From the NCBI GenBank assembly GCA_029263125.1, contig JAJCYD010000014.1, forward strand, positions 62,001 through 126,000: a stretch of 64,000 bases of DNA. The letters run 5' to 3'. Below the pieces are notes generated by a model. That model ran no database searches, was not told the DNA's origin, and was given only the letters and a program-made list of their open reading frames with translations. The translations under genes were made by a program, and so were the position numbers. This document shows, piece after piece, positions 1,921-48,728 of the stretch. Origin of the DNA: Solirubrobacteraceae bacterium (GTDB taxonomy: Bacteria; Actinomycetota; Thermoleophilia; Solirubrobacterales; Solirubrobacteraceae). Positions within the stretch are counted from its first letter, which is position 1; the number at the start of each line of letters is the position of its first letter.

Positions 1921-3438
1921 CTAGGACAGCGCGCCCGTGGCGCGTCCACGTCCGCGATCACGGCGGCGCACCTCGCGCAGCGCGGCGGCCAGCCGGCGCG
2001 CCGCCTCGTCGTGGACGGCGGGATCCAGCAGCCCGAAGGACAGCCGCATGCTCGTGCGCGAGGTCTTCTCGGCCTGGATGGCGCCACCCGGCAGGAACGA
2101 GACACCCGCGCGCAGCGCCTCGGCGTACAGCGCCCGCTCGTCGATCGGCTCGTGAAGCGTCAGCCAGACGTGATGGCCGCCGCTGGGGACCGTCCACGTC
2201 GCAGCGTCGCTCAGATGGCGATCGAGCGCCGCCAGCAGTGCGTCTCGCCGCGAGCGGTAGATCGGGATCACGCGCTTCAGCAGCCGCTCGTGACGGTCGC
2301 CGCTCAAGTAGCGAGCGCCGAGGTGCTGGGGGAGCGCCGCGGTGTGGATGTCGGCGTCGAGCTTGAGCTGCACGAGCCGGTCGAGCACCGGGCCACCGGC
2401 CGCGATCCAGCCGACGCGCAGGCCGCCGCCAATCGTCTTTGACAGCGAGTCGACGTAGATCACGTGTGAGGGCGCCGCGGCTCGCAGACACGGCAGCGCG
2501 GGCCCCTCGTACCGGATCGTCGCGTAGACGCCGTCGTCGAGGATGAGAAACCCGCGTGTGCGCGCGAGCTCCAGCAGGCGGTCGCGGCGCCGCGGCGAGA
2601 GGTCGGCGCCGGTCGGGTTCTGACACGAGGCCTGAACCGCCACGAGCTTGACGTCGTGGCGCGCGAGGATCCGTTCGAGCGCCGCGATGTCCGGTCCCTC
2701 GGCGTCGACCGCAAGCGCCAGGACGCGCGCGCCGGTCGCCTGCAGCGAGGCCAGCGTGCCGGCGAACGTCGGTGACTCGACGACCGCCACGTCACCGGGG
2801 CTGAGCACCGCCCTCGCGACGAGATCCAGCGCTTGGCGGGCGCCCGTCGTGACGAGGATCTCGTCGGGACTCTGCGCGTAGCCCGCTGCCCGGCCCATCT
2901 CCGCGAGGCGCTCGCGCAGCTCCGGGAGCCCCTCGACGGCGAGGTAGTCGGTCACCGCGCGCGGGTTCTGGCGGGCGAGCTCGGCGGCGATCTGCGCGAG
3001 CTCCCGCGCTGGGCACAGGTCGGGCGACGGGAAGCCGGACGCGAGCGCGATGACGTCCTCGCGGTAGGGGGCATGCAGCGTGTCGGCCAGCATCTCATCG
3101 GCGTAGGACAGCGTGCGCGGAGCCAGCATCCCGAGCTGCCAGTCGTCGTCGTCCGCGTCGGCGGCGGCCGCCACCGGGACGCTGCGGCGCACGAAGGTCC
3201 CGCGACCAACGACGGCGGCGACGTATCCGAGCTCGGCCAGCCGCCGGTACACGCGAACTGCCGTCAGGTGGTTGATCGACGCCTCGGCGGCCAGGGCGCG
3301 CGTCGCTGGCAGCTTTGATCCCGGCTCCAGGGTGCCGTCGTCGACAAGCCGCGCGACATGATTCACGAGCTGCTGCGTGATGGAGACCTCGCCGTCGCGA
3401 ACAAGGTCCAACACGCCAAGAGTGTGTGATATTGACAT
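1921..3438 (-). CDS. MocR-type GntR/aminotransferase fusion regulator
   Basis: A 505-residue fusion of an N-terminal GntR winged helix (about residues 10-85, including LPATRALAAE and LTAVRVYRRLAELGYV) and a fold-type I aminotransferase domain (about 115-490). The PLP-binding residues are in place: Asn274 in SCQNPTG, Asp302 and Tyr305 in DDGVY, and Lys334 in DSLSKTIGGG. Family members are PLP-sensing transcription factors rather than working aminotransferases, and often control a divergent neighbour. Here the neighbour is the small GNAT-like gene at 3478. The ATG at 3438 lies inside the shared promoter region, and a TATGAT box sits 12 nt upstream of it on the minus strand, so a leaderless or very short-leader transcript is likely. 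Confidence 0.9.
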   Translation of the reverse strand: MSISHTLGVLDLVRDGEVSITQQLVNHVARLVDDGTLEPGSKLPATRALAAEASINHLTAVRVYRRLAELGYVAAVVGRGTFVRRSVPVAAAADADDDDWQLGMLAPRTLSYADEMLADTLHAPYREDVIALASGFPSPDLCPARELAQIAAELARQNPRAVTDYLAVEGLPELRERLAEMGRAAGYAQSPDEILVTTGARQALDLVARAVLSPGDVAVVESPTFAGTLASLQATGARVLALAVDAEGPDIAALERILARHDVKLVAVQASCQNPTGADLSPRRRDRLLELARTRGFLILDDGVYATIRYEGPALPCLRAAAPSHVIYVDSLSKTIGGGLRVGWIAAGGPVLDRLVQLKLDADIHTAALPQHLGARYLSGDRHERLLKRVIPIYRSRRDALLAALDRHLSDAATWTVPSGGHHVWLTLHEPIDERALYAEALRAGVSFLPGGAIQAEKTSRTSMRLSFGLLDPAVHDEAARRLAAALREVRRRDRGRGRATGALS

Positions 3439-3523
3439 GTGCCCGGTCGATCATACAGTGGCATTGTCCGAGGCCAGATGGAGAGCCGTATGTCATACAC
3501 ATGGGACACACTGATCGACCGGG
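3432..3523 (+). promoter_or_regulatory. Divergent promoter and candidate MocR operators
   Basis: A plus-strand promoter reads TTGACA (3432-3437), a 16-nt spacer, then TACAGT (3454-3459), and would drive the gene at 3478. The spacer contains CCCGGTCGATCA (3442-3453), whose perfect inverse TGATCGACCGGG lies at 3512-3523. Between them is GTATG-T-CATAC (3488-3498), and TCATACA is directly repeated at 3451 and 3493. MocR regulators commonly bind paired repeats in such divergent regions, so operator function is a reasonable inference. It has not been tested. Confidence 0.55.
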
Positions 3524-3873
3524 TGGCGCGGCGTTCGAAGCGTCGCTCGACCGCCGGCACGACGGCCGACCCAGCCGTGACGATCCGGCTTGCGCGCGAT
3601 GCGGACCGTCCTCGTCTGGAAGAGCTTGCGGTGCTGGACAGCGCCCGGCCACTGACAGGCCCGGCGCTCGTCGCGGTCGTCGATGACCGCCTGTGGGCGG
3701 CGCACGGACTCGCCGACGATCGCGTCATCGCGGATCCGTTTCAGCCCAGCGCGGAGGCCGCCGGCCTGCTGGCGCTGCGAGCCCGCCAGCTGCGCGCGGC
3801 GCAGCGGCGCAGCGAGTCGCGCACGTTGCGACAACGGCGACTTGCTCGCGACGGCGATCTGCGCAACTCTTGA
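3478..3873 (+). CDS. Small GNAT-like protein
   Basis: A 131-residue protein. The central part (VTIRLARDADRPRLEELAVLD, then GPALVAVVDDRLWAAHGL, then DDRVIADPF) follows the first strands of a GNAT acetyltransferase fold, but the acetyl-CoA-binding loop and the C-terminal half are absent. The C-terminus is an Arg-rich helix (LLALRARQLRAAQRRSESR). Such half-GNAT proteins recur in actinobacteria without known function. I chose ATG 3478, preceded by CGAGG; ATG 3490 is possible. It is divergent from the MocR gene and probably under its control. Confidence 0.7.
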   Translation: MESRMSYTWDTLIDRVARRSKRRSTAGTTADPAVTIRLARDADRPRLEELAVLDSARPLTGPALVAVVDDRLWAAHGLADDRVIADPFQPSAEAAGLLALRARQLRAAQRRSESRTLRQRRLARDGDLRNS

Positions 3874-3892
3874 CCCGCTAGGGTTTTCATAA

Positions 3893-4034
3893 CACGAGCC
3901 GAATCCGGCGTCGCCCTGCGACGCTGGAGCGGGGGACCCAGGGTGACCTAGAGCGGTCACGGGGGCGAATTGCCGCATGGAGCGGCATAGCGCGGTCTTT
4001 GCGCGCGAGCCCGTCAGCTAACCCCGTAGGCGAA
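3893..4034 (+). promoter_or_regulatory. c-di-AMP (ydaO/yuaA-type) riboswitch
   Basis: The leader of the M23 peptidase gene contains the conserved blocks of the ydaO/yuaA class in the right order: GAGCGGGGGACCCA (about 3927-3940), GGGGGCGAAT (3961-3970), and near the 3' end GAGCCCGTCAGCTAACCCC running into GTAGGCGA (about 4007-4033). These match the family consensus around the two ligand pockets. In other actinobacteria this RNA class controls cell-wall hydrolases and is an OFF switch when c-di-AMP binds. Its position 35-170 nt before a peptidoglycan hydrolase fits. No obvious U-rich terminator follows, so the expression platform is unclear. Confidence 0.9.
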
Positions 4035-4067
4035 CTCAAAGAGATCGCATCAGGGGGAGGGCAGTCC

Positions 4068-5111
4068 GTGTTCGAGTCGTATCTTGCGCCGGCGACAGGT
4101 GTCGCGCCGTATCGTGACCTAGGGTCCTTTGAGATCTGGGATGTATCGCTGAGTCGCTCGCGGCGTCGCCGCACGCTGGCCGAGCAACACCGCAAGTCCG
4201 CGCCGAAGACCAAGGGCGCAGCCGCCGCAGTCAGCGCCGCCCTGCTCGTCTCGCCGCTGCTGCCGTTCGCCTCCGGATCGGCTCACGCCAGTGGCACCGC
4301 CCGCTCGGCGCCGCCGCTGCCACGACCGCCTCACGGTGGTGGCGCGATCGCCAAGATGGGCGACCGCAGCGCCACCGTCGCCAAGATCCAGCGCGCGCTG
4401 GGCATCGGCGACGATTCGATCTTCGGTCCGATCACTCAGCGCTCGGTCAAGCGGTTTCAGTCCAAGGCCGGCCTGGAGAGCGACGGCGTGGTCGGACCCA
4501 AGACGTGGAAGGCGCTGGTGAAGGATCCGGTGCCCGCGGCGTCGATGACCACGCGGGCGGCCCCGAAGCACAAGACGGCCACCAAGCGGCGGACCGTGGC
4601 ACGCACCGAGGCGCCGACGGGCACCTGCGGCGGGCCGATCACGGCGCCCGTCAAGGGCGAGCAGTGGGGAGGGTTCGGCGATGGGCGCAACCACGCCGGC
4701 GTGGACATCGCGGCCGCGGTCGGAACGGCGGTGCGCGCGGCGGCATGCGGGACCGTGACCACCGCCGCGAGCGACGACAGCGGCTACGGCAACCTCATCT
4801 GCGTCGCGCACAGCTCGTCGTTCTCGACGTGCTACGCGCACCTGTCGAAGATCAACGTCTCCGCGGGCGAGCGCGTCGAGGCTGGCCAGGTCATCGGCCG
4901 CGCCGGGATGACGGGACGCACCAGCGGGCCGCACCTGCATTTCGAGACGCGCGTCGATGGCAGCCCGGTGAATCCGGCGCCCTACCTCTCGGGGTCGCGC
5001 GTCATTCCCGGGGAGAAGCATCCAGACGCCGGCGCACCGACGGCAGAGGTCCAGGCCGCCGCCGCGCCCGCCGGAGCAACCCAAGCCGGAGGAGCGTCAC
5101 CCGCCGGGTAA
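4068..5111 (+). CDS. Secreted M23 peptidase with peptidoglycan-binding domain
   Basis: A 347-residue cell-wall hydrolase. After a basic N-terminus there is a hydrophobic segment ending in SGSAHA (about residues 50-75, probable export signal), a PG_binding_1 domain (about 96-149; MGDRSATVAKIQ to VVGPKTWKAL), a Lys/Arg/Thr-rich linker, and an M23 endopeptidase domain (about 205-310). Zinc ligands are visible in NHAGVD and in GPHLHFE. The frame is open back to 3999, but that part overlaps the riboswitch. The GTG at 4068 follows GGGGGAGGG by about 7 nt and is the better start. Expression should respond to c-di-AMP. The tail is Ala/Pro-rich and probably disordered. Confidence 0.9.
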   Translation: MFESYLAPATGVAPYRDLGSFEIWDVSLSRSRRRRTLAEQHRKSAPKTKGAAAAVSAALLVSPLLPFASGSAHASGTARSAPPLPRPPHGGGAIAKMGDRSATVAKIQRALGIGDDSIFGPITQRSVKRFQSKAGLESDGVVGPKTWKALVKDPVPAASMTTRAAPKHKTATKRRTVARTEAPTGTCGGPITAPVKGEQWGGFGDGRNHAGVDIAAAVGTAVRAAACGTVTTAASDDSGYGNLICVAHSSSFSTCYAHLSKINVSAGERVEAGQVIGRAGMTGRTSGPHLHFETRVDGSPVNPAPYLSGSRVIPGEKHPDAGAPTAEVQAAAAPAGATQAGGASPAG

Positions 5112-9640: not shown

Positions 9641-11287
9641 GTGCCGTGCCACAGACGACGAGGGGCCGCCGGAGTCGCGATGCTTGCGACGATCACCTTC
9701 GGCGGTGCGCTTGGTGACATCAGCTCCGCGCTCGCCGGCCCCTCGCAGCAGCGGACCGTGCGGGTGCGCTGGGCCAAGACCGGCAGCCCGGACGCCGCGA
9801 GCCGTCACCCGTCGCTGGCTGCCGACGCTCGGCGGGTGGCGTTCGCGTCGGACGCAACGAACCTCACGCCCCGCGAGGACCGCAACTCGGCGCGCGACGT
9901 CTTCGTCTACGACCAGGGTGCGGGCGAGCTGCTCCTCGCTTCGCTGGGCCCCGGCGGTGTGGGCGCCAACGGCCCTTCGGACGAGCCGGTGATCAGCGGT
10001 GACGGGAAGATCGTGGCGTTCGCATCGCGCGCGACGAACCTGGTTGCGGGCGACGAGAACCGTTCGGCGGACATCTTCGTGACAGTCCCCGGGACCACGG
10101 ATCCGGTCAGGGTCAGCACGCTGACCGGCGGCGGCGAAGCCGACGGCCCGTCTCGCGAGCCGGATCTGTCCCACGACGGGCGCATGCTCGTCTTCGCCTC
10201 TGATGCGAGCAACCTCGTCAAGGGTGATGACAACAAGCGCACCGACGTATTCGTTCGCGACCTGCGCAGCGGAGCGGTCTCCCTGGTCAGCAGCGCGCGT
10301 GGTGAGGCTGGACGCTCGGCCTCCGGCGACTCCACGGCGCCGGCGATCAGTCCGGACGGGCGCTACGTGAGCTTCACGTCGACCGCCGACGACCTGGCCA
10401 AGGGCGACGCCAACAGGCGCCCCGACGTCTTCGTGCGCGACCTGCTCGCCCGCCGTACCGCGCTGGTGAGCGTTTCGCGCACGTCGGGACGCACCGCCGG
10501 CAAGGACAGCGTGCTGACGTCCGACATCAGCCGCAAGGGGCGCTACGTCGCGTTCTCCTCAGATGCCAGGAACCTCGTCCGCCGCGATCGCAACAGGCGT
10601 AGCGACATCTTCGTCCGTGACCGCAGGGCGCGGACGACGCGGCGAGTGAGCCTGTCGACGACCGACGAGGAGGTCAACGGCGACTCCTACGCGCCGGCGA
10701 TCACGCCTGACGGGCGCTTCGTGGCGTTCGCGTCGCGGGCGCGCGATCTCGTGCCCGAAAGCGCGCGCGGCGAGGACGTGTACGTTCGCGATGTCCGCCG
10801 GCGCACGACGGTGCTGGCCGACGTCAGCTCCAAGGGCCGTCCGCGAGGGCGCGAGCGCGGGGCGCGCCGCCGCCAGCGTCCGGCGATCAGCGCCGACGCT
10901 GAGACGGTCGCGTTCACGTCGTCGGCGAGCAACCTCGTCGGGCACGACTCAAACCGCGTCGCCGACGTCTTCCTGCGGCGCATGAGTCCGGCCGCGACGG
11001 CGGTCGCACGTCGGCGGGTGGAGGCACAGGACGGCCGTCTTGTGATCACCTTCAAATCCACCAACAAGACCGCCGGGCCGCTGCGCTGCCGGCTGGATGA
11101 CGGTCCGCCTTCCCTGTGCCCGTTGAGGGGTACCCTGCTCCCCCGGCTCCGCGACGGGCGCCACACGCTGCGGGCTCTGGCGGGAGCGCCGGGCGCGTTC
11201 TACGCGCAGCGGGCGATCGTCATCCGGATGACGGTGCGCAAGGGCCGCGTGGCAGTTTCCGTGCAGAATCCGGCCGACGGATTTTGA
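9641..11287 (+). CDS. Secreted PD40/WD40-like beta-propeller protein
   Basis: A 548-residue exported protein. The N-terminus is basic (PCHRRRGAAG) then hydrophobic (VAMLATITFGGALG), ending near ISSALA, as in a signal peptide. The body is about seven repeats of a TolB-like PD40 blade, each with a core like SPDGRYVSFTS, a basic loop, then a RRSDIFVRD strand. Repeats begin near residues 45, 100, 155, 205, 255, 305 and 360. A C-terminal domain (about 450-548) has cysteines in LRCRLDDGPPSLCPL and looks like an Ig-type sheet. Function is unknown; binding or scaffolding at the cell surface is likely. GTG 9641 keeps the positive signal region; ATG 9680 is possible. Confidence 0.8.
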   Translation: MPCHRRRGAAGVAMLATITFGGALGDISSALAGPSQQRTVRVRWAKTGSPDAASRHPSLAADARRVAFASDATNLTPREDRNSARDVFVYDQGAGELLLASLGPGGVGANGPSDEPVISGDGKIVAFASRATNLVAGDENRSADIFVTVPGTTDPVRVSTLTGGGEADGPSREPDLSHDGRMLVFASDASNLVKGDDNKRTDVFVRDLRSGAVSLVSSARGEAGRSASGDSTAPAISPDGRYVSFTSTADDLAKGDANRRPDVFVRDLLARRTALVSVSRTSGRTAGKDSVLTSDISRKGRYVAFSSDARNLVRRDRNRRSDIFVRDRRARTTRRVSLSTTDEEVNGDSYAPAITPDGRFVAFASRARDLVPESARGEDVYVRDVRRRTTVLADVSSKGRPRGRERGARRRQRPAISADAETVAFTSSASNLVGHDSNRVADVFLRRMSPAATAVARRRVEAQDGRLVITFKSTNKTAGPLRCRLDDGPPSLCPLRGTLLPRLRDGRHTLRALAGAPGAFYAQRAIVIRMTVRKGRVAVSVQNPADGF

Positions 11288-11353: not shown

Positions 11354-12835
11354 ATGGTACGGCGCAATAGAGCTGCAGGGGCGACGGCATGCATGGTCGC
11401 CATCGGTGTGCTGATCGGACTACCCGCGCTGTCGGGCGGGGCCACGGACGAGGGCAAGCTGCGCTCATTCGAGACGGCGCAACCGCGGGCGACGTCGGCC
11501 ACGCCGCGCACCGAGCCCCCGCTGCACGGCACGAACCCGCATGGCCAGGGCACGGCCGCCGTCGTCGATCTCAATCCCGACTCCACGCGCCCCTACGCCG
11601 TCGACGCCGATGGCAACACCGGCAGCGAGGACATCGTCGTCGGCCGGGCGCGCGGCGAGCAGCGCCCCGACGGCACCTACCACGGTCACATCACGATCGC
11701 CGCGCTGTTCGGCAACGAGATCCTCGGCGTCGATACGAACGAGGGCGAGACCAAGAGCGGGCCGCTGGACGCGGTGCAGCAGGCGTTGCTCACTCCGTTG
11801 TGCAATGCCACGGCGAACGCGATCTGTCTCTCGGTCCTGACGGCCGACTCGACCACCACGGCCAACGGCTCGACGAACCATTTCCAAGCGGCTGACGTCA
11901 GCCTTGGCGGTCCCGCGGGCCTGAAGGCCGACGCGGTGGAGTCCAACGGCAACATCAGCGCCACCGCCGACTGTCAGACCTCCCACGGCGATAGCGTGCT
12001 TCTGGATGTCCTGGCCGGCGGCGCCGTCGCGGTCGGCGTGGCGAGGTCCTCCACGGACTCCCAGGCCTGCCGCGGTCAGGCCCCGACGCAAACCAACAGC
12101 TCGGAGGTCCTGAATCTCAGCGGCTCCGTGCTGCCCGATCTGCCGATTCCGATTCCGGTTCCGATTCCCGTGGCGGCCGGCTGTGCAGGCGGCGCGCCCG
12201 ACACCGAGACCGGGCTTCCGCTGCTGCTGCCGATCGTCTGCAACGCCGACGACACCAACGGCACGCAGGCCGCCGCGCCCTACGGCGTGCGCAATGCGCT
12301 CGACGTGTACGTTCTCGCCGTCGGGCCGAGCGCGCTCGCCAAGGTCACGGCCGCCGCCTCCGAGTCGCGGGCTGTGGCTCCGGCAGCGGTGACGCCGCCA
12401 CCGCCACCGCCACCGCCGCCGCCGCCGCCACCGACCACTCCGACCGCGACGACTCCGACGGCGACGACTCCGACGGCGACGACCCCGACCGCGGCGACTC
12501 CGACGGCCTCTGACGACAACGGCGCCGACACTGACGGCAGCGCCCCCTCCGACGCTGGCGGCGGAGCTCCGGAGTGCTCCGACAAGGTCGACAACGACGG
12601 CGACGGCGTCATCGACAGCCGCGATCCGGGCTGTCACACCGACGGCAACGCCAACAACCCAGCGTCGTTCGATCCCAACGACGATTCCGAGGCCAACGGC
12701 ACGCCGTTGGCGAGCGCCGACAAGCTGCCGTTCACCGGCACCGACGTGCTGGGCGTCGGCCTGGCCGGGTCGTTGCTGCTGGCCGCCGGCCTGGCGATGC
12801 GTGGCCGCACGCGGCGGCACCAGCTCAGTTCCTGA
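11354..12835 (+). CDS. LPXTG-anchored surface protein with acidic repeat (copy 1)
   Basis: A 493-residue protein. The signal peptide is MVRRNRAAGATACMVAIGVL and beyond. A large domain begins with LHGTNPHGQGTAAVVDLNP and contains SEDIVVGRARGE and GETKSGPLDAVQQALL, with scattered cysteines. Next come a Pro run and a TPTATTPTATT repeat (about residues 345-375), one acidic ECSDKVDNDGDGVIDSRDPG motif like a calcium-binding thrombospondin type 3 repeat, and a sorting signal: LPFTG at 458, a hydrophobic helix and RGRTRR. It is a clear paralogue of the protein at 45754. It lies convergent with a gene whose own paralogue follows that copy. The function of the main domain is unknown to me, and no sortase gene is in the window. 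Confidence 0.85.
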   Translation: MVRRNRAAGATACMVAIGVLIGLPALSGGATDEGKLRSFETAQPRATSATPRTEPPLHGTNPHGQGTAAVVDLNPDSTRPYAVDADGNTGSEDIVVGRARGEQRPDGTYHGHITIAALFGNEILGVDTNEGETKSGPLDAVQQALLTPLCNATANAICLSVLTADSTTTANGSTNHFQAADVSLGGPAGLKADAVESNGNISATADCQTSHGDSVLLDVLAGGAVAVGVARSSTDSQACRGQAPTQTNSSEVLNLSGSVLPDLPIPIPVPIPVAAGCAGGAPDTETGLPLLLPIVCNADDTNGTQAAAPYGVRNALDVYVLAVGPSALAKVTAAASESRAVAPAAVTPPPPPPPPPPPPPTTPTATTPTATTPTATTPTAATPTASDDNGADTDGSAPSDAGGGAPECSDKVDNDGDGVIDSRDPGCHTDGNANNPASFDPNDDSEANGTPLASADKLPFTGTDVLGVGLAGSLLLAAGLAMRGRTRRHQLSS

Positions 12836-12846
12836 CGCACACGAGC

Positions 12847-12878
12847 GTGACGCGCCGGGAATCGTCCCGGCGCGTCAC
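12847..12878. terminator. Bidirectional terminator between convergent genes
   Basis: A perfect 14-bp inverted repeat (GTGACGCGCCGGGA and its complement) around a four-base ATCG loop. It sits in the 49-bp gap between the LPXTG gene and the convergent gene ending at 12885. There is no long T-run on either side, but stem length and position make terminator function likely. Confidence 0.7.
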
Positions 12879-12884
12879 GCGGCG

Positions 12885-13538
12885 TCAGCTCGGCTTGCTG
12901 TAGCGCACCGACGAAAGCAGTGCGCGCAGCTCCAGAACCCTGCGAGAACTGGGCTGCGGCACGGTGAAGACCTGCACGCTGTAGGTCTGCCAGCGGCTTG
13001 AGAGGCCCATCGAGAGGATGCGGATCCGCCGTCCCTTGGACTGGGTACCCGTGAGCTCGGTGATGAGCGTCGGCGCGGTCCCGACGCTCGAGCGCCGGCG
13101 ACCGACCTCCTTGGCCTTGAACAGGCGCTTGAGCTCCTTGCGATCGGAGGCGCGGACCTGCTGCTCCTTGCCACTGGCGCCGGCGATCGAGATGGCCACG
13201 CTCATCGAGGAGTCCGGGCTGGAGGCGTTCAGCACACCGCGCCGGACGGCCGCGCTCCATCCTTTGGGTCGACCGAACGCGATGCCAAACTTCTTGAAGG
13301 TGCGCGGGTCGACGTCGATGCGCACCTGCTGGGTGCTCGTCCCCGCGACGGGTTGGCCATCGTCATCGAACAACAGCCAGCCCAGCCCCAGACCTACGCC
13401 GACCGCGACGGCCGGGATGCCGAGTCGTCTGACGATTCGTCTCCGGCGACCCGGACGCCGAGCCATGGTGGACTTGGGGTCGGAAGGGGAGCCGCGGTCG
13501 GGCTCGTCGGTGGCAGGCTCTTCGGTGTCAGCCGTCAT
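12885..13538 (-). CDS. Membrane-anchored PsbP/LpqN-like protein (copy 1)
   Basis: A 217-residue protein with a charged cytoplasmic head (about 1-38, Arg-rich), one transmembrane helix (IPAVAVGVGLGLGWLLF, about 40-57) and an extracytoplasmic domain of about 150 residues. That domain starts with GIAFGRPKGWSA, has SSPDSSMSVAISIAG, and ends RVLELRALLSSVRYSKP. This pattern (a GxxFxxPxxW start, and a closing VRF/VRY helix-strand) resembles PsbP/LpqN-type small domains and is shared with the protein at 47368. It is convergent with the LPXTG gene and divergent from the Kelch gene at 13598. The role is unknown; association with the LPXTG partner is inferred from the duplicated pairing. Confidence 0.75.
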   Translation of the reverse strand: MTADTEEPATDEPDRGSPSDPKSTMARRPGRRRRIVRRLGIPAVAVGVGLGLGWLLFDDDGQPVAGTSTQQVRIDVDPRTFKKFGIAFGRPKGWSAAVRRGVLNASSPDSSMSVAISIAGASGKEQQVRASDRKELKRLFKAKEVGRRRSSVGTAPTLITELTGTQSKGRRIRILSMGLSSRWQTYSVQVFTVPQPSSRRVLELRALLSSVRYSKPS

Positions 13539-13597: not shown

Positions 13598-14725
13598 ATG
13601 CGCGGGGAGGGCGGATCGTGGAAGGCAAGGCTCTGGCTCATGCTGGCGTGCGTAGCCGGCGTCTTCGCGAGCGCGGTCGTGGCGTCCACCGCCGAGGCCG
13701 CTGCGGGGACGTGGTCCTCGGCGAGCCGCCTGCACGCCAGCCGCGAGTTTCATCCCGCGACGCTGCTGCCCGACGGCCGCGTGCTCGTCAGCGGAGGTTT
13801 CGGCTATGACGGGATCCTCGCGAGCAGCGAGCTCTTCGATCCCAAGCGCAAGCGCTGGACCACGACCTTCGGGCTCGAGAAGGCGCGCCTGGGACATACG
13901 ACCACGCTGCTGGGCACCGGGCGCGTGTTGGCGGTGGGCGGCGCGAACCTCAGCGACGGCTACGTCGCCCGCTCCGAGCTCTTCGATCCGGTCGCCGGAA
14001 CCTGGCAGGACGCGGCTCGATTGTCGCGGGCACGAGCCAACCACAGCGCCACGCTGATGCGCGACGGCCGGCTGCTCGTCGCCGGCGGGCTGTCCACCGG
14101 GCATGCGGTTCTACGTAGTAGCGAGCTGTATGACCCGCAGGCCGACAGGTGGTCGAGGACGCCGAGCATGCGCGCGGCACGCTTCCATCACACGGCGACC
14201 GGCCTGGGCGACGGCCGGGTGCTTGTCGCAGGGGGGGAGTCCAAGAGCGGCAGCTTCTTGCGATCGGTGGAGATCTACGATCCGGGCAGGCGGCGCTGGA
14301 CGCGCGCGGCCCCGATGCGTCGCGGCCGGGCCAACCAGACCGCGACGCTGCTGTTCGACGGCCGCGTGCTCGTCACCGGCGGTGGCGACCGAGCCCCGGG
14401 GTTCACCGCGACGGCTGAGATCTACAACCCGCGCACCAACCGCTGGAGGCTCGTCGGCAGGATGCGTCAGTCGCGCGGTCACCACATGGCGAGCCTGCTG
14501 CCCGACGGCCGGGTGCTCGTCGCCGGGGGCTTCGCCGACTCGGGCACGGTGCGCCGAACCGAGCTCTACGATCCCAAGACGCGCCGCTTCAGCACCGGTG
14601 GCGCGTTGCGCAACGCGCGTGCGCACGCATCGATCACGCTCCTGCCCAACGGCGTGCTGGTCTCCGGTGGCAGTCAGGTCTCGGGCCGGATCGTGCCCAG
14701 CGCCGAGCTGTACCGCGCTCGCTGA
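13598..14725 (+). CDS. Secreted Kelch-repeat protein
   Basis: A 375-residue protein with a signal peptide (LWLMLACVAGVFASAVVAST then AEA) followed by six to seven Kelch blades covering the rest of the chain. Each blade has LLPDGRVLVAGGF-like and SSELYDPxxxxW-like parts, about 49 residues apart, as in the galactose oxidase-type propeller. Catalytic residues of galactose oxidase are not evident, so a binding role is more likely. I chose ATG 13598 because the signal peptide starts there. The gene shares a 59-bp promoter gap with the divergent PsbP-like gene. Confidence 0.8.
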   Translation: MRGEGGSWKARLWLMLACVAGVFASAVVASTAEAAAGTWSSASRLHASREFHPATLLPDGRVLVSGGFGYDGILASSELFDPKRKRWTTTFGLEKARLGHTTTLLGTGRVLAVGGANLSDGYVARSELFDPVAGTWQDAARLSRARANHSATLMRDGRLLVAGGLSTGHAVLRSSELYDPQADRWSRTPSMRAARFHHTATGLGDGRVLVAGGESKSGSFLRSVEIYDPGRRRWTRAAPMRRGRANQTATLLFDGRVLVTGGGDRAPGFTATAEIYNPRTNRWRLVGRMRQSRGHHMASLLPDGRVLVAGGFADSGTVRRTELYDPKTRRFSTGGALRNARAHASITLLPNGVLVSGGSQVSGRIVPSAELYRAR

Positions 14726-20509: not shown

Positions 20510-22437
20510 ATGCCCGCGTCCAAGACCGCGAAACCGCCTGCCCGCATCCAGATCCTCGCGCCCGCGCCGATGATCGATTGCGGTCGCTTCGCCAGCAAGC
20601 GCTGCGTCGGCGACACGGTTGCCGTCAGCGCCGACATCTTCAGCGACGGCCACGACGTGCTGCGCGCGGTCGTGCGCTTCCAGGCTCCCGGCTCCAAGCG
20701 CTGGCAGGAGGCCCCACTGCGGCGCATCGATGCCCACATCGACGGCGATCGCTGGGCAGGCGCATTCGAGGTCACCGAGCTTGGACGGTACACGTGGACG
20801 ATCGAAGCCTGGATCGAGCCCTTCGCCGGCTGGCGCGACGAGCTGCGGCGTAAGGTCGAGGCCGGCCAGGCAGACCTGTCCGGAGAGCTGTCCGAGGGCG
20901 TCGTGCTGCTCGAGCAGGCGGCCAAGCGCTGCAAGGGCGCCGATCGTGAGCGCATCGCCGCTGCGCTGAGCGTGCTGGCCGACGCCGGCGCGACCGCCGA
21001 CGACCGCCACGCGGCCGCGCTGGATACCGCGCTGCAGGACGCCGTCGAGCGCCATCCCGACCGCAGCAGCTCCACGGTCTGCGAGCAACGTCTGCAGACC
21101 GATGTCGACCCGGTGCGCGCGCGCTTCGGCGCGTGGTATGAGCTCTTCCCGCGCTCGTGGGGCGGGCTGCCCGGCGTCAGGGACCACGTGCCCGAGCTGG
21201 CCGAGCTCGGCTTCGACGTGCTGTACCTGCCCCCGATCCACCCGATCGGACTCACCAATCGCAAGGGGCCCAACAACGCGCTGGCGGCCGCTGCGGGCGA
21301 CGCGGGCTCGCCATGGGCGATCGGAGATCAGACCGGCGGGCACACCGCGCTTCACTCCGACCTCGGGACGATGGAGGACTTCGACGCGCTGGTTGCCGTC
21401 GCCGGCGAGCACGGCATCGACATCGCGCTGGACTTCGCGATCCAGTGCTCCGCCGACCACCCGTGGCTGACCGAGCACCCCGAGTGGTTCAATCACCGGC
21501 CCGACGGCACGCTGAAGTACGCCGAGAACCCGCCCAAGAAGTACCAGGACATCTACAACGTCAACTGGGACTGCGAGGACTGGCGAGGCCTGTGGGACGC
21601 GCTGCTTGAGGTCGTGCGCTTCTGGGCCGATCGCGGCGTCAAGGTCTTTCGCGTCGACAACCCGCACACCAAGCCGGTCGCGTTCTGGGAGTGGCTGATC
21701 GCCAAGCTGCGCGCCGAGCATGCCGACATCGTCTTCCTGGCTGAGGCGTTCACGCGCGCCGCGATGATGAAGATGCTCGCCAAGGCCGGCTTCAACCAGT
21801 CCTACACGTATTTCACCTGGAAGAGCTCGAAGTGGGAGCTGACCGACTACGTCACCGAGCTCGCGTCGAGCGGCATGCAGGAGTACTACCGGCCGAACTT
21901 CTTCGTCAACACCCCGGACATCCTCACCGAGGAGCTGCAGGTCGGCGGGCCGCCGAAGTTCGCCAGCCGGCTCGTGCTCGCCGCCACGCTGAGCCCCAGC
22001 TACGGCGTGTACTCGGGCTTTGAGCACTTCGAGCGCGTGCCGGTGCGACCGGGCAGCGAGGAGTACGACCACTCCGAGAAGTACGAGATCAAGCAGCGCG
22101 CGCTGGACGGGCCGTTGATGACGCTGATCTCGCGCCTGAACGCGATCCGCCGCGAGAACCCGGCCTTGCAGCGCCTGGACAACATCCAGTTCCTCGGCAC
22201 CGAGAACGAGGCGCTGATCGCCTACGCCAAGCGCACCGGGGAGAACACGGTGATCTCGGTCGTCACGCTGGATCCCGCCAACGCCCAGGAGGGCGTCGTC
22301 GTCGTGCCCTACAGCCTGGGCCTACCGCCGGTCTTCACGGTCACCGACCTGCTGTCCGCCGAGAGCTTCGAGTGGCGCATGGGCCGCAACTTCGTGCGCC
22401 TGGACCCCTACCGCGTCGCCCATCTGCTGCGGGTCGC

Positions 22438-22441
<4 letters not shown>
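20510..22441 (+). CDS. glgE: Alpha-1,4-glucan:maltose-1-phosphate maltosyltransferase
   Basis: A 643-residue GH13_3 enzyme that extends alpha-1,4-glucans from maltose-1-phosphate. An N-terminal all-beta domain (about 12-105) is followed by the helical insertion (about 105-195) typical of GlgE, then the catalytic barrel. Nucleophile Asp is in [19 protein letters not shown], acid/base Glu in [15 protein letters not shown], and the substrate-defining [15 protein letters not shown] is present. ATG 20510 is preceded by GGAGAG. Its stop overlaps the treS start (ATGA), so glgE, treS, mak and glgB form one coupled operon. Confidence 0.96.
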
Positions 22442-24122
<1,681 letters not shown>

Positions 24123-24126
<4 letters not shown>

Positions 24127-25384
24127 GCCTTCCGGACATCGTCACATCGCCGCTGGAGGAGTGGGTCGCATCCCAGCGCTGGTTCGCCTCAAAGGCGCGC
24201 GAGATCGCCGGCCTCAACACGCTGCGCCACGTCGAGCTGTCCAGCGAACCCGCGCTCTCGGTGCAGCTCGTCGAGGTCGTCTTCGCCGCCGGCACGCACG
24301 AGCTCTACCAGCTGCTGCCCGGCGATCCAGACGGCGCGGAGGTGCTGGCCTCGCTGCTGGGCAGCCAAGCCGCGATCGACGGGGTCACCTTCCATGGCAG
24401 CGTCACGCCGACGGGCGAGATGCGCCAGATGGGGGCCGAGCAGTCCAACACGTCGGTCGTCTTCGGCGACGAGTTCGTGCTCAAGGCCTTTCGGCGGCTG
24501 GAGCCGGGGGTCAACCCGGAGCTTGAGATGCTGCGCTTTCTGTCTGAGCGCGGGTACCCGAACATCGCCGCGCTGGCGGGCTGGTATGAGTACCAGGGCG
24601 AGCTGATGCACGCGACGCTCGGCGTCCTGCAGGAGTTCGTCGGCGAAGCCCGCGACGGCTGGCAGCTGGCGCTGGATGATCCCGAGGGCCTGCTGCACCG
24701 GCTGCCCGAGCTCGGGACCGCCACCGGTGAGATGCACAGCGCCCTGGCCTCTGACGGCGACGATCCGGCGTTCGCTCCCGAGGAGCCCAGCGCCGAGGCG
24801 CTGTCGCTGCTGACGGCCACCATCGACGAGCAGATCGAGCGCGTCTTTCGCGAGCTGTCTGCAGACGATCCCGTGCTGGCGCCGATCGCCGGTCGCGGCG
24901 AGGAGGTGCGCGAGCACCTGCAGCTCATGTCCCACGTCGGCGTCGGCGGGCGCCTGATCCGCCACCATGGCGACTACCACCTCGGCCAGACGCTGATGTC
25001 CGACGCCCGCTGGATCATCCTGGACTTCGAGGGCGAGCCGGCGCGTTCGCTGCTGGAACGCCGCCGCAAGCGCTCCCCGCTGCGTGACGTGGCAGGCATG
25101 CTGCGATCCTTCGCCTACGCGGCGTCGGCGTCGCAGCTGCTGCATGGTGTCCCCTCCCCGGAGGGTTGGGAGGCGCGAGCGCGCAAGGCCTTCCTCGACG
25201 CCTACTTCGGCGCCGTCGAGCCCACACTGCTGCCCGCAGGCCGCCCGGCGACCGAGAAGCTGCTGGCCATCTTCGAACTCGAGAAGGCCGTCTACGAGCT
25301 GCGTTACGAACTCAACAACCGCCCCGATTGGGTGCCGATCCCCGTTGCGGGAATCGCCCGCCTGCTGGAGACAGAGGTCACAAC

Positions 25385-25388
<4 letters not shown>
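24123..25388 (+). CDS. mak: Maltokinase
   Basis: A 421-residue protein of the aminoglycoside-phosphotransferase fold that makes maltose-1-phosphate from maltose and ATP. The N-terminal cap carries [12 protein letters not shown], typical of Mak. The catalytic loop is [12 protein letters not shown] and the metal-binding motif is [12 protein letters not shown], followed by [18 protein letters not shown]. It sits between treS (maltose supplier) and glgB, with 4-nt overlaps on both sides, which fits the GlgE pathway. Confidence 0.95.
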
Positions 25389-27560
<2,172 letters not shown>

Positions 27561-27580
<20 letters not shown>

Positions 27581-27953
27581 CCTGAAGTGCTTCGAGCACC
27601 GTGGCGATGCGCTCGAAGTGGCGGTCGCGCGTCCAGACCGTCGCTCGATTGACGGCCGCGGTCGCGATCAGGACGTCGGGCAACGAGACCTGGATGCCCT
27701 GCTGGCGAAGCTCCGCGCGCAGGTCGCCCGCCACGAACCACTCCGTGCGGGCGATGTCGGCCCATTCCATCGCCGCGAAGATCTCCCACAGCCTCATGCG
27801 TTCGCTCGCTGTCACGCCCGTGAGCAGCTCCGACGCGACCGGTCCACACATCAGGACGTCGTGACCGGCGAGCCGGTCGTCCAGCTCGTCGGTTGCGGTT
27901 GATGACGTCCCGCGCAGGAAGTCGATCCAGACGGACGTGTCAGCGAGGATCAT
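27561..27953 (-). CDS. vapC: VapC-type PIN-domain toxin
   Basis: A 130-residue PIN-domain ribonuclease, the toxin of a type II pair. The acidic metal-binding residues are in place: Asp in MILADTSVWIDFLRG, Glu in VASELLTG, Asp in SLPDVLIA and Asp in WTRDRHFERI. Its start overlaps the antitoxin stop by 4 nt. Its 3' end overlaps the end of glgB on the other strand, so the pair sits tail-to-tail against the glycogen operon. It is full-length and appears functional. Confidence 0.92.
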
Positions 27954-28192
27954 CGGCCAGCGCCGCGTCGTTCGTCCAACCGTTCCTGGCGCTCGCGATC
28001 CAGGCGGTCCAGCTCATCGGTGCGATCGACGATCGCGGGGAAGACGCCGCGTAGCCGGCGCACCTGTTCGTAGGCGTCGGACTTGACGAAGTGATCGATC
28101 GCGTTCTCGATCGCCTTCGTCTTCGACAATCCGGGGCTGCGCGTCATCAGCGCGTCGAGCAGGCGGTCGTCGATGTCGAGCGTCGTGCGCAT
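27950..28192 (-). CDS. vapB: VapB-type ribbon-helix-helix antitoxin
   Basis: An 80-residue antitoxin. The N-terminal ribbon-helix-helix reads MRTTLDIDDRLLDALM and SKTKAIENAIDHFVKS; the C-terminal half is charged (RTDELDRLDRERQERLDERR) and should wrap the toxin. It is the first gene of the pair, as usual, with a 4-nt overlap into vapC. VapB-VapC complexes normally repress their own promoter, which would lie upstream of 28192. Confidence 0.9.
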   Translation of the reverse strand: MRTTLDIDDRLLDALMTRSPGLSKTKAIENAIDHFVKSDAYEQVRRLRGVFPAIVDRTDELDRLDRERQERLDERRGAGR

Positions 28193-28274
28193 GGCAGATC
28201 GTCTGCCAGATCATAGCCCCGAGGGTCGGCGGCTTGCTGGGCACGCGAAGGCTCAAGCCAGACGGAGGTCTCAG

Positions 28275-28640
28275 TCACGACTGCGACGGGCGCCGCGTCG
28301 TTCGCCTGACCGCAAGTCGCGGGGCGAGCTCCGCGATCGTCTGACGGCCGCGCTCGAAGACATCGCCGTAGGTGAACGCCAGGTGGTTGGAGCGACGGCG
28401 GCGTGCGACGTCGTCCTCGAACGCGCGTCGTGAGGCATGAAACGTGTAGCTGAGCAGCTCGACGGTGAGGTCGTGCCCGGGCCAGTGGCAGTCGACCTTG
28501 TCGCCGCGATGATCTCTGTTCGTGCGCGGCGCCGGCAGGCGGTGGGCACCCAGCAGCGTGAGAAAGCCGTCCTCGAACGCGCTCAGCGTGACGTCTGATC
28601 CGAGCGCGAGGCGTAGCTTCGCCGCACCGGGCCAAGCCGC
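28275..28640 (-). pseudogene. DUF559-like protein, C-terminal remnant
   Basis: The open frame on the minus strand runs from 28745, but only the part from about 28640 looks like protein: TLSAFEDGFLTLLGAHRLP, then KVDCHWPGHDLTVELLSY, then RRAFEDDVARRRRSNHLAFT and YGDVFERGRQTIAELAPRLA. This is the C-terminal domain of a family with a DUF559/endonuclease-like core common in high-GC actinobacteria. The N-terminal part (usually 150-200 residues) is missing, and the upstream codons run through a palindromic element (28651-28710). I call it a 5'-truncated remnant. Residual expression is possible but unproven. Confidence 0.6.
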
Positions 28641-28650
28641 GCGAGTGTGG

Positions 28651-28710
28651 CGCCTTGACCCCGCATTTCGGGGTGAACCCGCCACACGCGGGGTGTGAGA
28701 GGTCAACACC
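28651..28710. repeat. REP-like palindromic element
   Basis: A compact nested structure. Outer arms are TTGACC (28655-28660) and GGTCAA (28701-28706); inside are two hairpins, CCCCG-CATTT-CGGGG (28659-28673) and CCCGC-CACAC-GCGGG (28678-28692). The first resembles the TGACCCC/GGGGTCA palindromes seen as dispersed repeats in many bacteria. It lies exactly where the DUF559-like gene is broken. Whether it is a mobile REP-type element depends on other copies in the genome. Confidence 0.45.
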
Positions 28711-28792
28711 TTGGGGGCCTCCAGGTGTGGCCGGACGTGTCGCATGATGCGCCCGGTACGAACACCGCACCACAGCGAAGGAGCTACACCCC

Positions 28793-29218: not shown

Positions 29219-29238
29219 CTCGCCGAACCGGTCTGTGG

Positions 29239-29262: not shown

Positions 29263-29332
29263 TCCCCGTCGGTCAGGGCACCGTGTGGGCCGATGCCCGC
29301 ATGTCCGTCCCCCGGCCGGGTACCGTGAAGCG

Positions 29333-31066: not shown

Positions 31067-33200
<2,134 letters not shown>

Positions 33201-45753: not shown

Positions 45754-47367
45754 ATGGGCTCGAGACGTTATGGACTTCTGGCGATCATCATCGCCGCGGC
45801 GGTGATCTGGGTATTGCCATCGGCCTCCTCGGGCGCTGATCTACGCACAGCGGGCGAGAAGCTGAAGAAGGGCACCGCCGATCTCGGCAACGCGGTCGAG
45901 ACGACCGTTGACAAGACCGCCAAGGCGCTGCGCAACACGAGGTCCAAGACCGGCGCCGCGGTCGAGAAGGCCACGAAGAGCTCCAAGGCTTCCAAGCGGG
46001 CAACCGCGACCGACCCCAAGACCCAGCCGCCGCAGCACGGCAGCAATCCGCACGGACAGGGCGGGGTCGCGATCGTCGACGTCAATCCAAGCGCTGAGCG
46101 TCCGCTGAGCTCCGATCCGAGCGGTCGCGAGAGTGGCGAGGACGCGATCATCGGCCGCGCCCGCGGCGAGAAGGTCAACGGCGCCTACCGCGGACACATC
46201 GCGATCGCGTCGCTCCTGGGCAACGAGATCATCAGCGGCCCGACGACGGCGCCGGGCGAGACCAAGAGCGGCCCGCTTGAGCCGATCCAGGCCGGCATCC
46301 TCGATCCGCTGTGTAAGGGCCTCAACGACCAGGTGTGTCTCGAGGTGCTGAAGGCCGACTCCAAGACGACGGCGACGGGCTCGGCGAACGACTTCGCGGT
46401 GGCGCGCGCCGGCGTGCTCGGTTTGGGCGTCGGGGCTGCCGAGAGCCAGGGCGTGATCAGCGAGGACGCCAACTGCCAGACCGCGGTTGGCAGGTCCAGG
46501 ACGGCGAACGTCACGACAAGCACCGGCGCGATCGCGACGGCCGCCAACTCGAGCAGCACGTCGAAGTCCTGTGCCGGACAGGCCCCGCAGACCACGAACA
46601 CGTCTGAGGTCATCGGGCTCGGAGGCACAGCGGTCGCGATTCCGCTCGTGACCCCGGACGCCGGCTGCCAGAACGGCATTCCGGACACCGTGACCGGCCT
46701 CGGGCCGCTGCTGCCGGTCGTCTGCAACGCCGACGACGTCAGTGGCGCCGCAGCGGTGCGCGAGGCGCTCGACGTCTTCGTGCTGGAGATCGGCGGCGTG
46801 CCGATCGTGCAGGGCCAGACTCCGACGTCGCTGGCGAAGGAGACCACGGCTGCCTCGGAGTCCTTCACGATTGCTCCGGCTGCGGCCGAGACTCCCGGGC
46901 CGCAGTGCTCGGACACCCTGGACAATGACGGTGACGGCAAGATCGACGCGGCCGATCCGGGTTGTCATAGCGACAACGACGCGACCAACTCGGCGAGCTT
47001 CAACGCCAACGACAACGACGAGACCGACGCGGCCGGTCCGTCCACCGGATCCGCTGGCGACGACGCCAGCGACTCTAAGACGCAGTGCTCGGACAAGAAG
47101 GACAACGACGGCGACGGCAAGATCGACGCCGCTGACCCGGGCTGTCATGAGGACAACGACATCAACAAGCCGTTCAACCCAGACGACGACAGCGAGGGTA
47201 GCGACGGTAGTGGCGGCGGCGGAGGTGGTGGCGGCGGCAACCAGGGCACCAATGCGAGCTCCCTGCCGTTCACCGGCACCGATGTCGTTGGGCTGACGCT
47301 GGCGGGACTGCTCATGCTCGCCGGCGGACTGCTGCTGCGCCGTCGGGAGGGCACGCTCACCACGTAG
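45754..47367 (+). CDS. LPXTG-anchored surface protein with acidic repeats (copy 2)
   Basis: A 537-residue paralogue of the protein at 11354. The signal peptide is GLLAIIIAAAVIWVLPSASS. An extra Lys/Ala-rich helical stretch follows (about 28-90; KLKKGTADLGNAVETTVDK), then the shared domain QHGSNPHGQGGVAIVDVNP, GEDAIIGRARGE, GETKSGPLEPIQAGI. Two acidic DNDGDGKIDAADPGCH motifs (thrombospondin type 3-like) lie near residues 390 and 450, then a Gly run. The sorting signal is LPFTG at 504, a hydrophobic helix and LRRREG. ATG 45754 follows AGGGAGG. It lies inside an ABC exporter operon. Its stop touches the next start codon. Confidence 0.85.
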   Translation: MGSRRYGLLAIIIAAAVIWVLPSASSGADLRTAGEKLKKGTADLGNAVETTVDKTAKALRNTRSKTGAAVEKATKSSKASKRATATDPKTQPPQHGSNPHGQGGVAIVDVNPSAERPLSSDPSGRESGEDAIIGRARGEKVNGAYRGHIAIASLLGNEIISGPTTAPGETKSGPLEPIQAGILDPLCKGLNDQVCLEVLKADSKTTATGSANDFAVARAGVLGLGVGAAESQGVISEDANCQTAVGRSRTANVTTSTGAIATAANSSSTSKSCAGQAPQTTNTSEVIGLGGTAVAIPLVTPDAGCQNGIPDTVTGLGPLLPVVCNADDVSGAAAVREALDVFVLEIGGVPIVQGQTPTSLAKETTAASESFTIAPAAAETPGPQCSDTLDNDGDGKIDAADPGCHSDNDATNSASFNANDNDETDAAGPSTGSAGDDASDSKTQCSDKKDNDGDGKIDAADPGCHEDNDINKPFNPDDDSEGSDGSGGGGGGGGGNQGTNASSLPFTGTDVVGLTLAGLLMLAGGLLLRRREGTLTT

Positions 47368-47955
47368 ATGCCCGACAGGTTCCTCGACGCGCTAACAGGG
47401 CGCCGCCTCGGCGGCGCCCTGTTCGTGCTCTGTGGGCTGATCGTCGCGGGAGTCGTGCTGTGGCCCAGCGATGACGGCGACGATCGCGCTCCCAAGGCGA
47501 AGATCCAGCCCGTGCGCCTGGTGTCGGTGCCGCAGCTTGGCCTAGCGTTCGCGCATCCGAGTACGTGGTCGCGCACCACGTCGGGTTCGGTCCTGCGCCT
47601 GCGCAGCCCTGATGGCAGCGCCCTGCTGACGTTCGCCTCGCCGCTGGAAGGCCGCCAACCGGCGCGCGTGAAGGACGCGCTGAAGGAGGCTCTGCGCAAG
47701 CGCTACCGCCCCGCCAAGATCGTGGATGACGGCAAGGGCAAGCTGGGCAAACACAACGTCACAACCTTCGAGCTGGAGGGCTCAGGCGATGACGACAAGG
47801 GCGTGCGCGCGCTGGTGTTCGTCGGCAATTCGGCGTACCGCACGTACGCGGTGACGCTGCTCACGCCCGCAAATCCCTCTGCCAAGCGGCTGGTGGAGGT
47901 GCAGCAGATCCTGGCGACCGTGCGCTTCACCAAGCCCCAACTCGCCAGCAAGTGA
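47368..47955 (+). CDS. Membrane-anchored PsbP/LpqN-like protein (copy 2)
   Basis: A 195-residue protein. A short cytoplasmic head and one helix (LGGALFVLCGLIVAGVVLW) are followed by an outside domain starting LGLAFAHPSTWSRTTSG, with RLRSPDGSALLTFASPL, and ending RLVEVQQILATVRFTKPQ. These landmarks match the protein at 12885. It starts directly after the LPXTG stop and ends with a GTGA overlap into the permease gene. It is therefore translationally coupled to both. A strong hairpin lies in its first codons (47395-47422). Confidence 0.78.
   Translation: MPDRFLDALTGRRLGGALFVLCGLIVAGVVLWPSDDGDDRAPKAKIQPVRLVSVPQLGLAFAHPSTWSRTTSGSVLRLRSPDGSALLTFASPLEGRQPARVKDALKEALRKRYRPAKIVDDGKGKLGKHNVTTFELEGSGDDDKGVRALVFVGNSAYRTYAVTLLTPANPSAKRLVEVQQILATVRFTKPQLASK
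47395..47422 (+). terminator. Intragenic 13-bp hairpin near the start of copy-2 PsbP-like gene
   Basis: ACAGGGCGCCGCC and its perfect complement GGCGGCGCCCTGT are separated by only TC. The structure starts 27 nt into the coding region. It has no T-run. It could end part of the transcripts after the LPXTG gene, or slow translation, setting unequal amounts of the surface protein and the downstream membrane proteins. Confidence 0.4.
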
Positions 47956-48728
47956 CAGACCTGCTGGAGCGCCATCGCGGCCTGATCGCCCTCTCGGGTC
48001 GGGAGAGCGTGCGCGTGCTCAAGCTGTGGACGCAGACAATCGCTGCACCGATGCTCTCGTCGATGCTGTTCATCCTCGTCTTCGGCGTGTCGCTGGGCGG
48101 CCGGATCCGCGAGGTCGGCGGCGTCGACTACGAGGTCTTCATCGTGCCCGGCCTGATCACGATGGCGATGGCGCAGGCCGCGTACTCCAACAACTCCTCG
48201 TCGGTGTTCCAGGCCCGCAGCGACCGCTACCTGCACGACGTCCTGGCGGCCCCGATGCGTGGCTGGGAGGTCAATCTGGGGTTGTCGATGGGCGGCGTGG
48301 TTCGCGCGCTGGCCATCGGCGCCGGCCTGCTGGCGATCGCCGCCCCCGTGACCGGCGTCCCGGTGCGCCACCCGTTCGTGCTGCTGCTCGCGACGGTGCT
48401 CGTGCTGGTGCTCTTCGCGTCGCTGGGGGTGATCGTCGGCATCTACGCGCAGACGTGGGACCAGGCGGGCTTCGTCAACAACATCGTGATCCTGCCGCTG
48501 AGCTTTCTCGGCGGCGTCTTCTACTCGGTCGACCTGCTGGCGTCGCCGTGGCAGGAGGTCTCACATGTCAACCCGATCTTCTATCTCATCAACGCGGTGC
48601 GCTACGGGTTTCTCGGAACCAGCGACGTGCCGGTGCTCGTCGCGCTCGGCGTGACCGCCGCCCTGACGGCCGGGATCGTCGCGTGGAGCGCGTCGATCTT
48701 CCGGTCAGGCCGACAGTTGAAGGACTGA
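47952..48728 (+). CDS. ABC-2 type permease (YadH-like)
   Basis: A 258-residue membrane protein with six helices. The motifs VFQARSDRYLHDVLAAPM and FLGGVFYSVDLLASPWQEVS, then HVNPIFYLINAVRYGFLG, are characteristic of YadH/NodJ-type permeases. It is the partner of the ATPase at 44885. The GTG start overlaps the stop of the PsbP-like gene by 4 nt. It exports an unknown compound or envelope component. Confidence 0.92.
   Translation: MTDLLERHRGLIALSGRESVRVLKLWTQTIAAPMLSSMLFILVFGVSLGGRIREVGGVDYEVFIVPGLITMAMAQAAYSNNSSSVFQARSDRYLHDVLAAPMRGWEVNLGLSMGGVVRALAIGAGLLAIAAPVTGVPVRHPFVLLLATVLVLVLFASLGVIVGIYAQTWDQAGFVNNIVILPLSFLGGVFYSVDLLASPWQEVSHVNPIFYLINAVRYGFLGTSDVPVLVALGVTAALTAGIVAWSASIFRSGRQLKD

What the first reader, a model, noticed from the sequence alone, without database searches (positions are those of the whole stretch)
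11354..13538. Duplicated two-gene module: LPXTG surface protein plus single-pass PsbP-like protein (copy 1 of 2)
The genes at 11354 and 12885 have paralogues at 45754 and 47368. The LPXTG proteins share the NPHGQG opening, the IGRARGE/VGRARGE and GETKSGPL blocks, an acidic DNDGDGxID motif and the LPFTG anchor. The small proteins share one membrane helix, a GxxFxxPxxW start and a closing VRF/VRY helix. The pairing survives although copy 1 is convergent and copy 2 is tandem. Retention of both partners in two arrangements suggests that they work together at the cell wall. I know no described system with this pair.
Basis: partly seen in the sequence, partly recalled or inferred. Interest (0 to 1): 0.75.

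Follow-up and report, generated by a model that had tools for sequence, protein, structure and literature searches.

The report
Sortase-anchored protein with PsbP-fold partner
Two neighbouring genes, one for a protein stapled to the bacterial cell wall and one for a small membrane protein with a PsbP-like fold, have stayed together, been duplicated together and moved together, which suggests that the small protein is a hitherto undescribed helper for putting proteins on the surface of Actinomycetota.

Summary
Copy A is an LPFTG surface protein (LPX, 11354-12835 +) facing a single-pass small protein (PSB, 12885-13538 -). Copy B is 45754-47367 + followed by 47368-47955 +. LPX A/B are 45% identical, PSB A/B 29%. 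PSB has the PsbP/Mog1/LpqN/Eag fold (VIA Z 10-13). The pairing is real. In 399 Thermoleophilia genomes, 18 of 20 strong LPX places have PSB within 3 kb. Copies A and B are separate clades in both trees, so the pair was duplicated as a unit. Copy B sits between an ABC ATPase gene and an ABC permease gene that adjoin in genomes without it, so the pair also moved as a unit. Beyond the class, one distant relative is an operon sortase-LAFTG protein-PSB. Of 10 further PSB genes there, 8 adjoin an ORF with a C-terminal sorting signal, mostly with unrelated heads. In tandem pairs a strong stem-loop lies in the first codons of PSB. Best explanation: PSB is a membrane-tethered, sub-stoichiometric accessory that holds exported sortase substrates at the membrane and hands them to sortase. 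Binding and hand-over are inferred, untested. No described system with this pair was found.

The parts
9680..11287 (+). PD40 (WD40-like) propeller protein, a recurrent neighbour of the pair (context, not core)
   Evidence: Pfam PD40 4e-20; homologues beside LPX in L012, L019, L023, L025, L031, L034, L036
11354..12835 (+). LPX copy A: signal peptide, choice-of-anchor-P-like beta head, Pro/Thr linker, one acidic CxDxxDNDGDG repeat, LPFTG-TM-basic tail
12845..12880 (.). 16-bp GC-rich stem with 4-nt loop between the convergent genes, terminator-like, no T-run
12885..13538 (-). PSB copy A: single-pass protein with PsbP-like domain, probably N-in
13598..14725 (+). Kelch propeller protein, divergent from PSB-A, a recurrent neighbour (context, not core)
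   Evidence: Kelch_4 4e-44 (scanned from 13538); in-frame ATG at 13598; neighbour in L012, L019, L023, L025, L034, L036, L041, L044
44885..45619 (+). ABC ATPase, upstream half of the ABC operon into which copy B was inserted (context)
   Evidence: orthologue is Pfam ABC_tran 3e-28; directly adjacent to the permease in genomes without the insert
45754..47367 (+). LPX copy B: signal peptide, helical-looking segment, beta head, two acidic repeats, Gly linker, LPFTG anchor
   Evidence: Gram_pos_anchor 22.3 bits over cut-off 20; acid_disulf_rpt 49.7 over cut-off 41
47368..47955 (+). PSB copy B, directly after the LPX stop (TAG-ATG); single helix about residues 15-31, PsbP-like domain 45-190
47394..47423 (+). 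13-bp stem-loop inside the first codons of PSB-B; attenuator- or stabiliser-like
   Evidence: -35.1 kcal/mol best 44-nt window; synonymous-codon null z -5.9
47952..48728 (+). ABC-2 permease, downstream half of the interrupted ABC operon; start overlaps the PSB-B stop (context)
   Evidence: orthologue is ABC2_membrane 1.5e-29

Best explanation
LPX is exported by Sec, kept in the membrane by its C-terminal helix and cut at LPFTG by the genome's single class E/D-like sortase, which links it to the wall. PSB is a membrane-tethered protein whose PsbP/LpqN-like domain faces outward. It most likely binds the newly exported sortase substrate at the membrane, keeps it folded and sortase-competent, and helps hand it over. 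It would be needed in smaller amounts than the wall protein; the stem-loop at the start of PSB fits lower expression of PSB. Shown: pairing, co-duplication, joint movement, PSB fold, sorting signals, sortase in one operon, stem-loop. Inferred: topology of PSB from its sequence, binding, hand-over, stoichiometry.
For: 18 of 20 strong LPX places in 399 class genomes have PSB within 3 kb; 18 of 19 strong PSB places have LPX, the odd one lying at a contig end. A and B clades are mirrored in both trees, Mantel r 0.61, p 5e-4. The pair was inserted as a unit into an ABC operon. Distant operon sortase-LAFTG protein-PSB (L047). Outside the class, 8 of 10 further PSB genes adjoin an ORF with a sorting signal; of 485 ORFs screened in these loci, 9 have such a signal and all 9 adjoin PSB. 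Several of those heads are unrelated to LPX, so PSB goes with the sorting signal rather than with one head. The PsbP/Mog1 fold is that of accessory proteins such as SciW/EagT6, LpqN and PsbP. The stem-loop sits in PSB only when PSB directly follows LPX.
Against: No binding data. A few LPX genes lack PSB (L035, L040) and a few PSB genes lack a sorted neighbour (L079, L080), so neither strictly needs the other. The sortase lies elsewhere in the window's genome. A shared fold does not show a chaperone role.
Confidence: 0.45

Rival explanations
1. PSB is a permanent membrane-side receptor or tether: its outward domain binds the wall-anchored LPX after sorting and bridges membrane and wall, or senses the wall.
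For: Same pairing data. The acidic DNDGDG repeats near the anchor of LPX would suit a wall-proximal contact.
Against: The PSB domain follows its TM helix after only about 15 residues, so its reach across the wall is short. The stem-loop suggests unequal amounts. Heads differ outside the class.
Confidence: 0.22
2. PSB is a folding helper for the cysteine-rich LPX head only (about six conserved Cys), with no role in sorting.
For: Conserved cysteines in the head; strict pairing within the order.
Against: PSB relatives pair with other proteins that carry sorting signals and have unrelated, partly helical-looking heads.
Confidence: 0.13
3. The genes stay linked only through shared expression or ancient operon inertia, without physical interaction.
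For: Both families are patchy in the class (18 and 54 of 399 genomes at E 1e-4), and many tandem pairs overlap or abut as in translational coupling.
Against: Linkage persists through inversion to convergent order, gene-order reversal (L021, L042), several contexts and a new insertion site.
Confidence: 0.1
4. Copy B works as part of an ABC-2 exporter, with LPX and PSB as extra subunits.
For: Order ATPase-LPX-PSB-permease conserved in seven loci; PSB stop overlaps permease start in several of them.
Against: The ABC pair exists without the insert in many genomes, and the LPX-PSB pair without ABC genes in most others.
Confidence: 0.05
5. LPX is a contact-dependent toxin and PSB its immunity protein, since the T6SS immunity proteins Tsi3 and TplEi share the PSB fold.
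For: Fold matches to Tsi3 and TplEi.
Against: The LPX head is conserved, not polymorphic, across the order; no toxin domain was found.
Confidence: 0.03

Closest known systems
Sortase-anchored (LPXTG/LAXTG) surface proteins with class E sortases, as in Streptomyces (PMC5148588) and Actinoplanes (PMC13251363)
   Same: C-terminal sorting signal, class E/D-like sortase in the genome
   Different: I know of no PsbP-fold partner described there; no paper in the library held both 'sortase' and 'PsbP'
NCBIfam choice-of-anchor P family (NF040603)
   Same: Two relatives of LPX pass its cut-off and 12 of 27 cores hit it
   Different: The window's own copies do not reach it; other choice-of-anchor P genes found in relatives do not coincide with any PSB hit
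LpqN of Mycobacterium tuberculosis (accessory protein of MmpL3, PMC7458404)
   Same: Same fold (6e5d, Z 11.1, rmsd 3.2, 134 aligned), envelope accessory protein
   Different: LpqN is a lipoprotein; PSB has an N-terminal TM helix and no lipobox, and its neighbours carry sorting signals
Eag chaperones SciW/EagT6 of type VI secretion (PMC12881460)
   Same: Same fold (SciW 6xrr, Z 12.5, rmsd 2.7, 117 aligned); genes associated with the effector they escort
   Different: Eag proteins serve T6SS effectors and are cytosolic (own knowledge); PSB is a single-pass membrane protein in genomes with sortase
PsbP and CyanoP of photosystem II
   Same: Same fold (2xb3, Z 12.8, rmsd 3.1, 141 aligned)
   Different: No Pfam PsbP hit; a weak NCBIfam PsbP hit only in L047; no photosystem context

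Membership tests
Sortase substrates (LPXTG type) | N-terminal signal peptide | tested here: inconclusive
   Hydrophobic stretch after a basic start in both, read from the sequence; no signal predictor was run
Sortase substrates (LPXTG type) | C-terminal LPXTG, hydrophobic stretch, basic tail | tested here: met
   LPFTG-TM-R/K tail in both; copy B over the Pfam cut-off (22.3 vs 20), copy A not detected by Pfam
Sortase substrates (LPXTG type) | A sortase in the genome | tested here: met
   One sortase, 5e-32, at C8; best model class E, below its cut-off
Sortase substrates (LPXTG type) | Covalent attachment to peptidoglycan | not testable with these tools
   Needs cell-wall fractionation
Choice-of-anchor P (NF040603) | Score above the curated 27-bit cut-off | tested here: not met
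   Window copies give no hit; relatives in G005 and G062 pass
PsbP/Mog1-like fold group | Fold | tested here: met
   Model pLDDT 86; Z 10-13 against PsbP, LpqN, SciW, Apa, DcrB
PsbP proper (photosystem II) | Sequence profile | tested here: not met
   No PsbP hit for any of 24 members among the Pfam and NCBIfam families listed
LpqN lipoproteins | Lipobox cysteine | tested here: not met
   Both window PSB proteins have a hydrophobic helix without a lipobox Cys at its end
Acidic double-disulfide repeat (NF033662) | Score above 41 bits | tested here: met
   Copy B 49.7 bits, two repeats; copy A 33 bits, below cut-off
Eag chaperones | Cytosolic partner of a T6SS effector | tested here: not met
   PSB has an N-terminal membrane helix and its neighbours carry sorting signals

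The most novel reading that the evidence does not exclude
PSB founds a general class of membrane-tethered PsbP-fold accessory proteins for sortase substrates across Actinomycetota, acting on the sorting step itself, independent of the substrate's head domain.
Probability: 0.35. Interest if true: 0.8.

Novelty: new variant of a known kind. Interest (0 to 1): 0.6.

Why it matters
How exported sortase substrates are held at the membrane before transpeptidation, and whether they have dedicated helpers, is to my knowledge poorly understood. A small, easily deleted, genetically coupled protein found across several families of Actinomycetota makes that question testable and gives a handle on two protein families that lack a function.

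Tried and rejected
Stop-codon read-through fusing LPX and PSB: the in-frame TAG-ATG of copy B looked suggestive, but frames vary among loci (GTGA and ATGA overlaps, spacers), so translational coupling is the simpler reading. Hairpin as a by-product of the coded Arg/Ala stretch: disfavoured by the synonymous-codon null and by stand-alone PSB genes, which lack it. LPX head fold: Foldseek and VIA gave only porin-like matches below Z 6, so no fold is claimed. Pfam gave no usable hit for the LPX head or for PSB. A complex prediction was not possible with single-chain jobs. Paper searches for the pair, for choice-of-anchor proteins with LPXTG, or for Thermoleophilia with sortase found nothing.

Full report
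What is there. Copy A: LPX 11354-12835 +, PSB 12885-13538 -. Copy B: LPX 45754-47367 +, PSB 47368-47955 +. LPX A/B: 45% identity, E 4e-99. PSB A/B: 29%, E 5e-17. The genome (3.75 Mb, 53 contigs) has only these two copies of each family as strong hits, and one sortase elsewhere, whose best NCBIfam model is class E, below its cut-off. Relatives in genome contigs are Solirubrobacteraceae, Solirubrobacterales, Thermoleophilaceae and unplaced Actinobacteria MAGs; that the class is Thermoleophilia is taken from those names.

LPX. From N to C: signal peptide (by eye), spacer, a head of about 290 residues with about six conserved cysteines, a linker, one or two acidic CxDxxDNDGDGxID repeats (NCBIfam NF033662), and LPFTG-TM-basic tail. 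The head is a divergent relative of choice-of-anchor P: 12 of 27 relatives hit the model, best 6.7e-8, and two pass its cut-off, but the window's two copies do not. Its model (pLDDT 79.5) is a beta meander without a confident structural match.

PSB. One N-terminal helix (residues 15-31 in copy B), then a domain with pLDDT mostly above 90. Foldseek and VIA match PsbP, LpqN, Apa, SciW/EagT6, DcrB and Mog1, VIA Z about 10 to 13, over residues 45-190. The basic N-terminus suggests N-in, domain outside (inference).

Pairing within the class. In 399 genomes, strong LPX hits (E below 1e-90) lie at 20 places and strong PSB hits (E below 1e-40) at 19; 18 coincide within 3 kb. Exceptions: LPX in G062 and the second copy in G078 (L035, L040); PSB in G082, at a contig end. 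The gap to the next PSB hit is wide (3e-44 to 8e-13), so the threshold is not critical. Order varies: LPX then PSB tandem, convergent, or PSB first. Genomes are mostly MAGs and not independent by descent, so counts are not probabilities.

Duplication and movement as a unit. In both trees, WA, L012, L023 and L025 form one clade. WB, L022, L024, L026-L029 and L033 fall together in another, with L032 also inside that clade in the LPX tree. G002 also has both types. So the pair was duplicated together. Copy B lies between ABC ATPase and permease genes; in 13 genomes of the same family without the insert there, these two genes adjoin (9-87 nt between aligned ends), also in G025, which carries its pair elsewhere. 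The pair was therefore inserted as a cassette. Copy-A-type loci have PD40 and Kelch propeller genes as recurrent neighbours; five loci have CcmE/CcmF nearby.

Stem-loop. In most tandem pairs a strong stem-loop lies 10-60 nt after the LPX stop, inside the first codons of PSB. At -30 kcal/mol or less: 11 of 16 tandem pairs against 3 of 50 other close tandem pairs (Fisher p 1e-6). Against synonymous-codon nulls, 14 of 16 tandem PSB genes are more stable than expected (9 of them at p 0.033 or less, W-B z -5.9), while 7 stand-alone PSB genes are not. L026 and L029 show it anchored to the PSB start even with a spacer. In L076 and L077, outside the class, it is again the strongest structure nearby; in L078 and L081-L084 it is not, and in L047 it is weaker. 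It has no T-run, so whether it attenuates transcription or stabilises the LPX mRNA is open; either would make PSB less abundant than LPX.

Outside the class. A phylum scan with the LPX core gave one weak hit outside the order, G563 (3e-9). Its surroundings, fetched before PSB was searched there, are an operon of sortase (L047 4642-5286 -; best model class E, below cut-off), a LAFTG surface protein (3031-4509 -) and PSB (2466-3017 -). A PSB model that includes this one gave ten further hits outside the class in the phylum sample, E 6e-11 or better. Eight of the ten adjoin an ORF ending in a sorting signal: LPFTG, LPTTG, MPQTG, LSRTG, LPFTG, LATTG, LATTG, LAFTG (L076, L077, L078, L081-L085). L079 and L080 do not. 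MPQTG and LSRTG are not canonical; L083 and L084 are one genus. A strict pattern gave seven of the eleven loci; the relaxed one, written after a first look, gave nine, and none among the other ORFs of 485 screened. L076 and L077 heads are homologous to L047's; those of L081-L085 are not, and several look helical. So PSB goes with the sorting signal more than with one head.

Mechanism. These facts fit a membrane-tethered accessory that acts on sortase substrates between export and transpeptidation. The rivals (tether, head-specific chaperone, expression linkage, ABC subunit, immunity protein) are ranked in their sections.

Novelty. No paper in the library held both 'sortase' and 'PsbP'; choice-of-anchor with LPXTG, and Thermoleophilia with sortase, also gave none. 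The library lacks most subscription papers. I call it a new variant of a known kind.

Noticed in passing
window 22372-33198: Run of alpha-amylase-family genes (maltogenic amylase-like, GlgB, and two more with CBM48 and alpha-amylase domains), an ordinary glycogen/trehalose-type cluster.
   Followed up: no
L034, L036, L039, L042, L013: CcmE and CcmF (cytochrome c maturation) genes recur near the pair in one set of genomes; meaning unknown.
   Followed up: no
L047 2463-5286: Three-gene operon sortase, LAFTG protein, PSB in another class of the phylum; the clearest link of PSB to sorting.
   Followed up: yes
L081, L082, L083, L084, L085: Sorted partners outside the class begin with repetitive, helical-looking segments (DxVxxxVxxT type); LPX copy B has a similar stretch after its signal peptide (window about 45838-45994).
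   Followed up: no
L037:7030-7650:-: Some PSB proteins weakly match TIGR03931, the type VII secretion-associated Rv3446c family (best 1.2e-5 among members, 0.011 for L037).
   Followed up: no
L019 9357-10483: Two PSB genes in tandem behind one LPX gene.
   Followed up: no
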